A stretch of 64,000 nucleotides of DNA. It comes from Chloroflexota bacterium. GTDB taxonomy: Bacteria; Chloroflexota; Anaerolineae; UBA4142. Positions 1 through 45,986 of this stretch are shown here, in pieces. Location: positions 1 to 64,000 of the forward strand of contig JACRBM010000052.1 of NCBI GenBank assembly GCA_016219275.1. Direction: 5' to 3'. The notes below the pieces were generated by a model, which was not told the DNA's origin, ran no database searches, and was given only the letters and a program-made list of their open reading frames with translations. Within the stretch, counting starts at the first letter, position 1. Each line of letters opens with the position of its first letter. The translations under genes and the position numbers were made by a program.

Positions 1-144
1 ACAGCCTCGCTCCGCCCACAAAAGGATGCGGGCGGACATGTGCTTTTATTAAGCCGGACACAGTTCTGGAGAGTACCGCGCGTCTACTTTGCAAACCCAG
101 GAGTGTCTTAACGAACATTCACGAAAACTCACAGATACGGTGAA

Positions 145-10730: not shown

Positions 10731-10734
10731 TTTT

Positions 10735-10845
10735 TTGAGGTTGGAGGTTGGAAATTAGAAGTTGGAGATTGGAGGTTGGAAATTGGAAGTGAGACTCGTG
10801 CGTCTAATTTCCAATTTCCAATTTCCAATTTCTAACTTCTAGATT
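10735..10845. repeat. GGTTGGAAATTGGAAG-type repeat tract between nuoJ and nuoK
   Basis: Several near-direct copies of TTGGAAATTGGAAG, then inverted copies (CCAATTTCCAATTTCCAA), make a low-complexity palindromic tract. Similar units occur at 13430-13460 before nuoE. No reading frame is supported. Confidence 0.65.
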
Positions 10846-20554: not shown

Positions 20555-20986
20555 ATGGAAATTACGATTCGATTGCATCGGAAATTTTCATCGCGCGTGG
20601 ATCGCGCACGCGTCAAGAAAATCGCGCGGAAAACGTTGCGCGCGGAAAAGGCGAATGCGGCATTGACGATCTACGTCACGACCAACGCCGAGATGCGCGC
20701 GCTCAATCGCGATTTCCACGCGACCGACGCGCCGACCGATGTCTTGTCGTTTCCGGCGGATGGGCGTTCTGTTGAACGTTCCTATATTGGCGACATCGCG
20801 ATTTCGTACGATACCGCGCGCGTGCAGGCGCGCGACGCGGGCTGGCGCATCGCGGACGAACTCGATTTGCTCGCCGTGCACGGCATTCTGCATCTGCTCG
20901 GCTACGACGATCTGACGCCGCGCAAACGCGCGCGGATGTGGAAGCGCCAAAAAGCAATCCTGGGACGCGTGGCAGGCGATGAGTAA
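20555..20986 (+). CDS. ybeY: Endoribonuclease YbeY
   Basis: 143-aa single-domain metalloprotein involved in 16S rRNA 3' maturation and ribosome quality control. The H-G-x-L-H-L-x-G-Y-D zinc motif is present (HGILHLLGYDDL, near residue 107), and the TDVLSFP motif is near residue 60. It follows pgpH by 22 bp and overlaps the next GNAT gene by 8 nt. Confidence 0.93.
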   Translation: MEITIRLHRKFSSRVDRARVKKIARKTLRAEKANAALTIYVTTNAEMRALNRDFHATDAPTDVLSFPADGRSVERSYIGDIAISYDTARVQARDAGWRIADELDLLAVHGILHLLGYDDLTPRKRARMWKRQKAILGRVAGDE

Positions 20987-21542
20987 CTCGATCACCATTC
21001 GAATCGCAACCTCCGCCGACAATGAGTTGCTCGCCGAAATCGGCGCGCAAACTTTTTACGCCACTTTCGCAGTGGACAATACGCCTGCCGATATGCAGGC
21101 GTATCTCGCCGCGTCATTCAGCCCGGACATTCAAGCCCGCGAGTTGGCAGACCCGCAATCCATTTTTCTGATTGCAGAAATTGATGGCGATACAGTGGGT
21201 TACGCGCAATTGCGCCAGAACCATATACCGTCCTGCGTCACCGGCGCGCGTCCGATTGAAATCGGACGACTCTACGCGCGGAAACAATGGCACGGGCGCG
21301 GCGTGGGCGCGGCGTTGATGCGCGCGTGTCTCGCGCACGCCACGCGACAAAATTCCGATACGCTCTGGCTCGACGTGTGGGAACACAATCCGCGCGCGAT
21401 TGCGTTTTATCGCGCCTGGGGTTTTACCCAGGTCGGCACGCAGGCATTTCAACTCGGTGATGATCTGCAAAACGATTTCGTGATGCAAAGACCCGTCACC
21501 CCCACGGCTTTTCAAAAGTCGCTTGACTCACTTACAACCTAA
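20979..21542 (+). CDS. GNAT acetyltransferase with a repeat-derived C-terminus
   Basis: 187 aa. The GNAT core includes EIGRLYARKQWHGRGVGAAL (acetyl-CoA loop, about residue 90) and WLDVWEHNPRAIAFYRAWGF. The last 14 or so residues (AFQKSLDSLTT) and the stop codon are encoded by miniature element A1, which inserted at the gene end. The catalytic core is complete. Substrate unknown. Confidence 0.85.
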   Translation: MSNSITIRIATSADNELLAEIGAQTFYATFAVDNTPADMQAYLAASFSPDIQARELADPQSIFLIAEIDGDTVGYAQLRQNHIPSCVTGARPIEIGRLYARKQWHGRGVGAALMRACLAHATRQNSDTLWLDVWEHNPRAIAFYRAWGFTQVGTQAFQLGDDLQNDFVMQRPVTPTAFQKSLDSLTT

Positions 21543-21613
21543 CCCCCTGCCCCCTTCCCTATAAGGGAAGGGGGCAGGGGGATGGGTCTGCAACTGACTT
21601 TTGAAAAACCGTG
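21503..21613. repeat. Miniature inverted-repeat element A, copy 1
   Basis: 111 bp with 18-bp terminal inverted repeats, CACGGCTTTTCAAAAGTC and GACTTTTGAAAAACCGTG, one mismatch. The centre is a C-run/G-run palindrome around TATA. A 10-bp target duplication with one mismatch flanks it: CCGTCACCCC (left) and CCATCACCCC (right). Copy 2 is at 25103-25214. No transposase inside. Confidence 0.85.
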
Positions 21614-21656: not shown

Positions 21657-21732
21657 TTAGGACGCGGATTCACGCGGATTTTCGCGGATAAGAAAAATAA
21701 TCCGCGTTCATCCGCGTTTATCCGCGTCCTAA
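21657..21732. repeat. TTAGGACGCGGA palindromic element
   Basis: Inverted ends TTAGGACGCGGA (21657-21668) and TCCGCGTCCTAA (21721-21732), with GCGGAT/ATCCGCG units inside. It fills the gap ahead of the desulfurase-like gene. Confidence 0.65.
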
Positions 21733-24640: not shown

Positions 24641-24952
24641 ATGTCCGACCCAGTTACCTTCAGCATTGCTGGAACTGCCACCGCCGCGATTGGCAAGACC
24701 GGCATCGTGGACACGATTCGCGATGCCGCCGTAGATTTTCTCGTCGAGCAAGCCAAATCGCTCGGCAAAGAAGAATTCACGAATCGCATCAAGGGCTTGC
24801 GTTCCGATGGCAAACTGCGCGCGCAGATTCAAGCCGCCACAGAACGCGCAGTCAAACGCTGGGCGGACGATTACCACGACCGCGACCTCACGCTTGCGCT
24901 TGCGCGAGACACGCAGTTTGTTTATCTCCAGCCAGACCCGAAGGGTTTTTAG
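24641..24952 (+). CDS. Small helical protein, likely N-terminal piece of a STAND/NACHT protein
   Basis: 103 aa with AAGGAG upstream. The helical sequence (GKTGIVDTIRDAAVDFLVEQ, then RWADDYHDRDLTLALARDTQ) resembles the N-terminal adapter helices of STAND/NACHT-type NTPases, which usually continue after a DTxF-x-DLP motif. Here the frame breaks at that point: the last five or so residues (PDPKGF) come from the palindrome 24935-24966. I infer a truncated remnant that could still be translated. No NTPase motif follows. Confidence 0.5.
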   Translation: MSDPVTFSIAGTATAAIGKTGIVDTIRDAAVDFLVEQAKSLGKEEFTNRIKGLRSDGKLRAQIQAATERAVKRWADDYHDRDLTLALARDTQFVYLQPDPKGF

Positions 24953-24966
24953 AAACCCTTCGGGTC
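24935..24966. repeat. GACCCGAAGGG palindrome at the end of the STAND-like gene
   Basis: Arms GACCCGAAGGGTTT and AAACCCTTCGGGTC surround the TAG stop of the 24641 gene. It could serve as a hairpin terminator, but there is no clean T-run. Confidence 0.7.
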
Positions 24967-24976
24967 TTGATCGTCG

Positions 24977-25095
24977 GGGTGTGCGTCAAGTTTTTGGGTG
25001 GTGAAAAAACCGTGCGAAGGTTGAACGGCAATTATATTTGATATGTCATCAAAACCTTCGCAAGGTTGAGTGTTCCAAAATTTTGACGGACACCC
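24977..25095. repeat. Miniature inverted-repeat element B
   Basis: About 119 bp with ends GGGTGTGCGTCAA and TTGACGGACACCC (13-bp inverted repeat, one mismatch) and an internal GCGAAGGTT/AACCTTCGC hairpin. The 9-bp duplication TGATCGTCG occurs at 24968-24976 and again at 25217-25225. The right copy is separated from the element by element A2, which inserted later at that junction. Confidence 0.75.
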
Positions 25096-25102
25096 TGATC
25101 GT

Positions 25103-25214
25103 CACGGCTTTTCAAAAGCCGCTTGACTCACTTGCCAACCTAACCCCCAACCCCCATCCCTATAAGAGAAGAGGGCAGGGGGATGGGTCTGCAAATGACT
25201 TTTGAAAAACCGTG
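25103..25214. repeat. Miniature inverted-repeat element A, copy 2
   Basis: 112 bp, closely similar to 21503-21613, with the same terminal repeats and C/G palindrome. A perfect 9-bp target duplication CCTGATCGT flanks it (25094-25102 and 25215-25223). Confidence 0.9.
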
Positions 25215-25232
25215 CCTGATCGTCGCACCTGT

Positions 25233-25261
25233 TTGACTCCCCTCGCCAATAATGTTACACT
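25233..25261 (+). promoter_or_regulatory. Sigma70 promoter of the dehydrogenase gene
   Basis: TTGACT (25233-25238), 17 bp, TACACT (25256-25261). It starts just after element A2 and its duplication. TTTTGGAGGAACC follows as ribosome site. Confidence 0.75.
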
Positions 25262-25291: not shown

Positions 25292-26284
25292 ATGTCGAAA
25301 CCCAAAGTATTCGTCAGCCGCCTCATTCCTGAAGAAGGGCTGGCAATGATGCGCGACCTGACCGAGATGACCGTGTGGGAAGGCGAACTGCCGCCGCCGC
25401 GCGAGGTGATGTTGCATCAAGCGCGCGAGTCGGATGGACTCGTCACTCTGCTCACCGATAAAGTGGACAGCGAGTTGATGGACGTGAATCCGCACCTCAA
25501 AGTCATTTCCAATTACGCGGTCGGCTTTGACAACATCAACATTCCCGCCGCCACCGAACGCGGCATTCCCATCGGCAACACACCCGGCGTCCTCACCGAT
25601 ACGACCGCCGATCTCGCGTTCACGTTGTTGATGGCAGTCGCGCGGCGCATTCAAGAGAGCATTGATTACGTGCGCGCGGGCAAATGGAAAACCTGGGGAC
25701 CGAAATTATTGACGGGCGTGGATATTCACGGCGCGACACTTGGCATCGTTGGCTTTGGGCGGATTGGGCAAGGCATGGCGAAACGCGCGAGCGGCTTTGG
25801 AATGCGCGTGCTGTACTACGATGTCTATCGCCGCGAGGACTTGGAAAAATCAATGGGCGTGACGTTCGCCGATCTCGACACGTTGTATCGCGAATCCGAT
25901 TTCGTTTCCGTGCACACCGATCTCAACGATACGACGCGGCACATGCTCAACGCAAGCGCGTTCGCGAAAATGAAAAAAACCGCGATCGTCATCAACACCG
26001 CGCGCGGTCCGATCATTGATCCGAACGATTTGTACGATGCACTCAAGAACGGCGTCATCGGTGGCGCGGGTCTCGACGTGACCGAACCCGAACCGCTCCC
26101 GATTGAGAGTCCGTTGTACTCGTTGCCGAATTGTCTCATCGTTCCGCACATCGCGAGCGCATCCGTCGCGACGCGCGCAAAGATGGCGCAGATGGCGGCG
26201 GCGAATCTCATCGCCGGTCTGCGCGGCGACAAACTGCCGACGTGCGTGAATCCGCAGGTGTACGAACGGGGAATTAGAAAGTAA
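25292..26284 (+). CDS. D-2-hydroxyacid dehydrogenase, glycerate dehydrogenase / glyoxylate reductase type
   Basis: 330-aa NAD(P)-dependent enzyme that likely interconverts glycerate and hydroxypyruvate, or glycolate and glyoxylate. The nucleotide-binding motif GIVGFGRIGQGMAKRA is near residue 152. The catalytic Arg is in NTARGPIID, the Glu in the TEPEPLP region and the His in VPHIASASVATR. Length and domain order are normal for the GyaR branch. Single-gene unit with its own promoter. Confidence 0.9.
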   Translation: MSKPKVFVSRLIPEEGLAMMRDLTEMTVWEGELPPPREVMLHQARESDGLVTLLTDKVDSELMDVNPHLKVISNYAVGFDNINIPAATERGIPIGNTPGVLTDTTADLAFTLLMAVARRIQESIDYVRAGKWKTWGPKLLTGVDIHGATLGIVGFGRIGQGMAKRASGFGMRVLYYDVYRREDLEKSMGVTFADLDTLYRESDFVSVHTDLNDTTRHMLNASAFAKMKKTAIVINTARGPIIDPNDLYDALKNGVIGGAGLDVTEPEPLPIESPLYSLPNCLIVPHIASASVATRAKMAQMAAANLIAGLRGDKLPTCVNPQVYERGIRK

Positions 26285-45909: not shown

Positions 45910-45986
45910 TGATTTTCGATTTGCGATTTGCGATTTTTGATTTGGCGCGCGGAGCAATCGAAAATCAAAAATCGCAAATCGCAAAT
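45910..45986. repeat. GATTTGCGATTT inverted repeat between ddl and murB
   Basis: Units TTTTCGATTTGCGATTT and the inverse AAAATCGCAAATCGCAAAT give a palindrome directly abutting both genes, leaving no room for a ribosome site ahead of ddl. Confidence 0.65.

What the first reader, a model, noticed from the sequence alone, without database searches (positions are those of the whole stretch)
24968..25225. Nested miniature elements with intact target duplications
Element B carries the 9-bp duplication TGATCGTCG, and element A2 sits at the edge of its right copy with its own 9-bp duplication CCTGATCGT. The order of insertion can be read directly, and both look recently mobile. A 9-bp duplication points to a specific transposase family.
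Basis: seen in the sequence. Interest (0 to 1): 0.65.

Follow-up and report, generated by a model that had tools for sequence, protein, structure and literature searches.

The report
Nested mini-transposons that target one promoter
Two kinds of tiny, gene-less transposons from unrelated families landed one beside the other because both insert at a fixed distance upstream of bacterial gene promoters, a habit already known for one family but, as far as I could find, not for the other.

Summary
B (24977-25095, 119 bp) is flanked by TGATCGTCG. A2 (25103-25214, 112 bp) splits B's right copy and has its own duplication, CCTGATCGT, which includes B's last two bases, so A2 came second. The genome holds about 50 B and 30 A copies, most with intact duplications.

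Two different transposase families are involved. B is an ISKra4-type MITE: a 1688-bp ISKra4 element with the same ends and a 9-bp duplication exists in a related genome. A is an ISAs1-type MITE: ISAs1 transposase genes abut A's terminal repeat in relatives.

Both families insert upstream of sigma70 promoters. Measured from the element edge, the -35 box begins at 15-17 bp for B (31/49 copies) and 17-19 bp for A (17/27), against 1.5-2% at other offsets. In the window the promoter is TTGACT-17-TACACT (25233-25261), before a 2-hydroxyacid dehydrogenase gene. Both elements measure from the same -35 box, which explains the recurrent 7-bp A-B spacing.

Promoter targeting is published for ISKra4. For ISAs1 I found no report, yet 21 of 30 complete Chloroflexota ISAs1 elements show it (control 3%, p=2e-20). 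No such signal appeared outside Chloroflexota in a small sample.

The parts
24968..24976 (.). Left target duplication of B, TGATCGTCG
24977..25095 (+). Element B, 119-bp ISKra4-type MITE, about 21-bp imperfect terminal inverted repeats GGGTGTsCGTCAA..TTTTGG, no transposase gene
   Evidence: same ends on full ISKra4 element in L125/L140
25096..25102 (.). First 7 bp (TGATCGT) of B's right duplication, the 7-bp spacer between B and A2
   Evidence: same spacing at C16, C40, C47 (twice) and C54
25094..25102 (.). Left target duplication of A2, CCTGATCGT (includes B's last CC)
25103..25214 (+). Element A2, 112-bp ISAs1-type MITE, terminal repeats CACGGYTTTTCAAAAG
   Evidence: ISAs1 transposase genes end in the same repeat
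25215..25223 (.). Right target duplication of A2, CCTGATCGT; 25217-25225 is the complete right duplication of B
25233..25238 (+). -35 box TTGACT of the targeted promoter (offset 18 from A2's edge, 16 from B's edge before A2 arrived)
25256..25261 (+). -10 box TACACT (17-bp spacer, TG before it)
25292..26284 (+). Downstream gene: D-isomer 2-hydroxyacid dehydrogenase (PF02826, PF00389)
24934..24967 (.). Perfect 15-bp-arm hairpin at the end of the upstream ORF, directly abutting B's left duplication
   Evidence: I3
21503..21613 (+). Element A1, second ISAs1-type MITE copy in the window; not at a recognisable promoter

Best explanation
B and A2 are non-autonomous miniature transposons moved by ISKra4-family and ISAs1-family transposases respectively (shown: matching ends and duplications; inferred: mobilisation in trans). 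Both transposases choose as target the DNA just upstream of a sigma70 promoter. The fixed distance from the -35 and -10 boxes is shown; the physical cue, most likely promoter-bound RNA polymerase or its alpha C-terminal domain, is inferred. B's duplicated bases fall at about -51 to -43 and A's start at about -53. When both hit the same promoter they therefore end up exactly 7 bp apart, and A's duplication includes the last 2-3 bases of B. Each insertion restores the target next to the promoter, so arrays grow at the promoter-proximal side with the youngest element nearest the gene.
For: Own genome, B: promoter with -35 at offset 15-17 in 22/49 copies on the right side (control offsets 13/882, p=3.5e-22) and 10/49 on the left (16/882, p=1.8e-7); 31/49 on either side. 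A: 17/27 on the right at offset 17-19 (7/459, p=2.5e-19), essentially none on the left. The -10 box alone peaks at offset 39 for B (22 of 98 flanks at 5/6 or better, median of other offsets 0), and it persists where the -35 is weak (11/62 against 0-2 in control windows). The 2-bp difference in preferred offset accounts for the observed 7-bp spacing with 9-bp duplications. The 7-bp A-B spacing occurs at C16, C40, C47 (twice), C52 and C54, with four different spacer sequences; in another genus the spacing is 7 bp (L197) and 8 bp (L213). Autonomous relatives: ISKra4, 1688 bp, same ends, 9-bp duplication, NF033572 206 bits; an ISKra4 element in the own genome, transposase 59% identical; ISAs1 genes directly abutting A's repeat. 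Independent test: complete Chloroflexota ISAs1 elements, promoter at 17-19 in 21/30 against 13/414 control windows, p=2e-20. The window promoter is found independently by a consensus scan.
Against: A third of B and A copies have no recognisable promoter at the expected place, including A1 in this window. Promoters are predicted from hexamers, not measured. No complete ISAs1 element with exactly A's ends and a duplication was recovered (contig ends). For A, the test with weak -35 boxes is uninformative (2/36). A and B share promoters more often than independent targeting would give, which this does not fully explain.
Confidence: 0.87

Rival explanations
1. The transposases recognise a short DNA sequence (TTGAC, which resembles GTCAA in the B terminal repeat) and have no connection with promoters as such; TTGAC happens to be the -35 box.
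For: B's terminal repeat has GTCAA at positions 9-13, and the target consensus is weakly palindromic, CAA-N7-[9 bp]-N7-TTG.
Against: The -10 box is enriched at the exact promoter spacing even where the -35 is weak: 11/62 B flanks against 0-2 in control windows. Several targets have TATAAT but poor -35 boxes such as TTTCTT or ATGTCT.
Confidence: 0.1
2. Insertion is random, and copies just upstream of promoters are the ones that selection tolerates.
For: Intergenic sites upstream of -35 are probably the least harmful places (inference; no tool result).
Against: Selection would give a broad spread upstream of promoters. Observed: sharp peaks (offset 16 for B, 18-19 for A) with background a few bases away. 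A faces the promoter with one end only (17 right, none left alone).
Confidence: 0.03
3. A and B form one co-evolved composite unit that moves together, and the 7-bp spacing is inherited.
For: At C40 a B-A-B block is bounded by GCGATTATT on both sides, as if it had moved as a unit. C47 carries the same spacer sequence as C40.
Against: The spacer differs between loci (AATTGCA, CGCCGAG, TGATCGT, GCCACAT) and matches the local target duplication, C40 excepted. B is inverted at C54. Most A and B copies are solitary.
Confidence: 0.04

Closest known systems
ISKra4 family (p-MULT 4) and TnGBS/ISLre2 (p-MULT 3), promoter-targeting Mutator-like elements (Guerillot et al. 2014, PMC3942029)
   Same: GGG ends (from memory of ISfinder), 9-bp duplication, ISKra4 transposase in the full-length relative; -35 of sigma-A promoters about 16 bp from the terminal repeat, on either side when the two repeats are nearly identical.
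   Different: B is a gene-less MITE present in about 50 copies that takes part in nested arrays; the paper treats complete elements.
ISAs1 family
   Same: CA-starting terminal repeats, 9-10-bp duplications, ISAs1 transposase (NF033564) next to A's terminal repeat in related genera.
   Different: Promoter targeting by ISAs1 elements was not found in the papers searched; PMC3942029 describes this specificity as atypical among prokaryotic elements and assigns it to p-MULT 3 and ISKra4. Here it holds for a MITE and for complete ISAs1 elements of Chloroflexota.
Ty3 and other Pol III-directed retrotransposons of yeast
   Same: Insertion at fixed distance from a transcription start (analogy drawn in PMC3942029).
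   Different: Eukaryotic, integrase-based; no relation by descent implied.

Membership tests
ISKra4 family (for B) | Terminal inverted repeats of about 20 bp starting GGG, nearly identical to those of a complete ISKra4 element | tested here: met
   B ends differ from the G010 element ends GGGTGTGCGTCAAAGTTTTGG at 2 of 21 positions each
ISKra4 family (for B) | 9-bp target duplication | tested here: met
   More than half of 49 copies have a 9-bp duplication at 0-1 mismatch
ISKra4 family (for B) | ISKra4 transposase in the element with these ends | tested here: met
   L125 element, NF033572 206.5 bits against cut-off 205; own C103 element 59% identical, ends 4 mismatches from B
ISKra4 family (for B) | Insertion with -35 box about 16 bp from the repeat | tested here: met
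   PMC3942029 section 12
ISKra4 family (for B) | Transposase motif between N1 and N2 associated with promoter targeting | not tested
   Motif is in a figure that is not held
ISAs1 family (for A) | Same terminal repeat as an ISAs1 element | tested here: met
   L182, L189, L192, L188, L193: ISAs1 gene followed by CACGGCTTTTCAATAG or similar; L160: CACGGCTTCTCAAAAG then MECTTPTFDVNLDP, the ISAs1 N-terminus
ISAs1 family (for A) | Target duplication of 8-10 bp | tested here: met
   9 or 10 bp in about 20 A copies; complete ISAs1 elements mostly 10 bp
ISAs1 family (for A) | Complete element with exactly A's two ends and a duplication | tested here: inconclusive
   Candidates in G001/G002 are cut by contig ends or truncated
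MITE | Short, gene-less, terminal inverted repeats, duplications, multicopy | tested here: met
IS256 family (considered for B) | IS256 (PF00872) transposase in the genome | tested here: not met
   0 matches in the own genome

The most novel reading that the evidence does not exclude
A lineage of ISAs1-family transposases, unrelated to the known promoter-targeting Mutator-like transposases, has independently evolved the ability to find promoter-bound RNA polymerase and insert at about -53, so that two unrelated transposon families stack in polarised arrays upstream of shared promoters.
Probability: 0.5. Interest if true: 0.75.

Novelty: new variant of a known kind. Interest (0 to 1): 0.6.

Why it matters
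Promoter-directed DDE transposition was described for Mutator-like families (PMC3942029). Finding the same positional rule in ISAs1 elements suggests convergent use of the transcription machinery as a safe landing site. It makes the question 'what does the transposase see at a promoter?' testable by comparing two unrelated enzymes that differ by about 2 bp in the chosen position. It also turns MITE positions into markers of sigma70 promoters in Chloroflexota genomes, where promoters are little mapped, and explains nested MITE arrays without special rules.

Tried and rejected
IS256 for B: no PF00872 in the genome. IS4/IS701 (PF01609 hits L110 and L112) as drivers: no matching ends. Own C103 ISKra4 element: right family but without a target duplication, and the nearest promoter lies at offset 10, so probably not an intact insertion. 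ISAs1 outside Chloroflexota: 0/13 with promoter, and of 10 plasmid-borne elements only three had recognisable ends with a duplication, none at 8.5 or above at 17-19 (one Acaryochloris element scores 8 at offset 18). The sample is small and GC-rich actinobacterial promoters score poorly, so this is left open. Literature searches found no promoter targeting by ISAs1; ISfinder and most subscription journals could not be searched.

Full report
OBSERVATION. B is 24977-25095 with TGATCGTCG on its left and, once A2 is taken out, on its right. A2 is 25103-25214 with CCTGATCGT on both sides. Because A2's duplicated bases begin with the last CC of B, B was there first. The window has a second A copy, A1, at 21503-21613.

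COPIES. A whole-genome search of the 6.16-Mb, 107-contig assembly gave about 50 B copies and about 30 A copies. I took the flanks of all of them and compared left and right. Most B copies have a 9-bp duplication; A copies have 9 or 10 bp.

A CLUE: FIXED SPACING. In six places A lies exactly 7 bp from a B end (C16, C40, C47 twice, C52, C54), with spacer sequences AATTGCA, CGCCGAG, TGATCGT and GCCACAT. Except at C40 the spacer is part of that locus's own B duplication. At C54 B is inverted, so A sits beside B's other end. A's duplication always contains the last 2-3 bases of B, so in each case A came after that B. C47 reads B-A-B-A. At C40 a whole B-A-B block is flanked by GCGATTATT, as if the block had moved as a unit using the outer B ends.

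WHAT B IS. No IS256 transposase is in the genome. Searching 60 relatives with B's terminal repeat gave hits in 18 genomes, nearly all in the same family or order. One pair in G010 (L125/L140) bounds a 1688-bp element with identical 21-bp ends, a 9-bp duplication ATCCCAGGA and a transposase that NCBIfam calls ISKra4 (206.5 bits, cut-off 205). The window's own genome has an ISKra4 element at C103 with ends 4 mismatches away from B's, transposase 59% identical. B is therefore an ISKra4-type MITE.

WHAT A IS. In related genera ISAs1 transposase genes run straight into A's terminal repeat: L182 and L189 (CACGGCTTTTCAATAG), L192 (CACGACTTTTCAAAAG), L188 and L193 (CACGGCTTCTCAAAAG). L160 starts with CACGGCTTCTCAAAAGTCGCTTGAC and then encodes MECTTPTFDVNLDP, matching the N-terminus of complete ISAs1 transposases such as L179 (MPEYTAPTIDVNLNP). 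A complete ISAs1 element in G008 (L179, 1306 bp) has a 10-bp duplication. The window's genome keeps an ISAs1 remnant (L111, 64% identical to L179). A is an ISAs1-type MITE; a complete element with exactly A's ends was not recovered.

TARGET SITES. Lining up pre-insertion sites showed TTGA at a fixed place right of B's duplication, and longer flanks showed TATAAT 17 bp further on. I scored a sigma70 promoter (TTGACA, 16-18, TATAAT) at every offset from the element edge. B: offset 15-17, 22/49 right, 10/49 left, 31/49 either; other offsets 1.5-1.8% (p=3.5e-22 and 1.8e-7). A: offset 17-19, 17/27 right, one left; other offsets 1.5% (p=2.5e-19). Examples for B: TTGACA-17-TAAAAT, TTGTAA-17-TATAAT, TTGCGT-17-TATAAT. 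The -10 box alone peaks at offset 39 for B and stays enriched where the -35 is poor (11/62 against 0-2), which argues for promoters rather than for a TTGAC motif. Taking the -10 hexamer as -12 to -7, B's duplication is about -51 to -43 and A's starts at about -53, next to the upstream edge of the polymerase and its alpha C-terminal domains (inference).

THE WINDOW. The promoter is TTGACT (25233-25238)-17-TACACT (25256-25261) with a TG before the -10 box, found independently by the scanner. It precedes a D-isomer 2-hydroxyacid dehydrogenase gene (25292-26284). A2 is 18 bp from the -35; B was 16 bp from it before A2 came. The 7-bp spacing thus follows from two families that measure from the same -35 with a 2-bp difference. 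Each insertion leaves a fresh target next to the promoter, so arrays grow on the promoter side.

OTHER GENOMES. In G002, another genus, A-like elements of 131-180 bp show the same peak at offset 17-19, and nested pairs recur: A-7-B (L197), A-8-B (L213), A-9-A (L212), with the promoter beside A. B-like elements in relatives peak at 15-17. The ISAs1 element in G008 has TTGACT-17-CATAAT at 19 bp (the scorer gives its best value at 18-19).

IS PROMOTER TARGETING A TRAIT OF ISAs1? With the offset window 17-19 taken from A, I located ends and duplications in ISAs1 elements from Chloroflexota and other phyla. That L232 (G073, same phylum as the window) and L244 (a Ktedonobacter MAG) are the same locus shows that the phylum is Chloroflexota. 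After removing duplicates, 21 of 30 Chloroflexota elements have a promoter at 17-19, against 13 of 414 control windows (p=2e-20). They include cultured Ktedonobacter robiniae, K. racemifer, Ktedonosporobacter rubrisoli, Tengunoibacter and Dictyobacter. None of 13 elements from other phyla did, and plasmid-borne ones were largely uninformative. Where one side only carries the promoter it is downstream of the transposase gene 13 times and upstream 7 times.

COMPARISON WITH WHAT IS KNOWN. Guerillot et al. 2014 (PMC3942029) report that TnGBS/ISLre2 and some ISKra4 elements insert about 16 bp upstream of the -35 of sigma-A promoters, on both sides when the repeats are nearly identical. B matches this closely and is a new, gene-less member. 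They treat the specificity as atypical and found it in two Mutator-like lineages. I found no report for ISAs1 in the library, which lacks ISfinder and most subscription journals. The ISAs1 result is therefore the new part.

LIMITS. Promoters are predicted. About a third of copies have none at the expected place. A and B share promoters more often than chance would give if some 4000 promoters were equally attractive (rough estimate 0.3 expected, four independent loci seen; inference), which suggests favoured promoters. The physical cue is inferred, not shown.

Noticed in passing
window 21503-21613: A1 starts inside the 3' end of the ORF at 20979-21542 (looks like a GNAT acetyltransferase), so the MITE supplies its last codons; its duplication has one mismatch and no promoter follows.
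   Followed up: partly
G000:C40:281525-281900 (L107): B-A-B block flanked as a whole by GCGATTATT, with a good promoter on the left: a composite transposon made of two MITEs carrying a third.
   Followed up: partly
G018:C94:3007-3209 (L118): Three B-like ends in tandem with a 91-bp period separated by TATATTCAA: a MITE tandem array with duplication-length spacers and no recognisable promoter.
   Followed up: no
G000:C13:70180-70254, C54:69364-69438, C54:102566-102639: 75-bp short forms of B with both ends.
   Followed up: no
window 25053-25067 and C3:38480, C38:33142, C40:36633, C101:28712: B contains the near-palindrome AACCTTCGCAAGGTT, which recurs outside B in the genome and may mark another repeat family.
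   Followed up: no
window 24934-24967; also left flanks at C64, C86, C99: A hairpin of the GACCCGAAGGG or GACCCGCAGGG type, probably a terminator, directly abuts the insertion on the far side from the promoter at several loci, so elements often sit between a terminator and a promoter.
   Followed up: no
window 10734-10841, 21657-21732, 45912-45986: Other strong inverted repeats (TTGGAAATTGGAAG type; GCGGATTCACGCGGAT type; AAATCAAAAATCGCAAATCGCAAAT) unrelated to A or B.
   Followed up: no
ends of contigs C12, C16, C47, C60: The assembly breaks inside or next to A/B arrays, so longer arrays probably exist.
   Followed up: no
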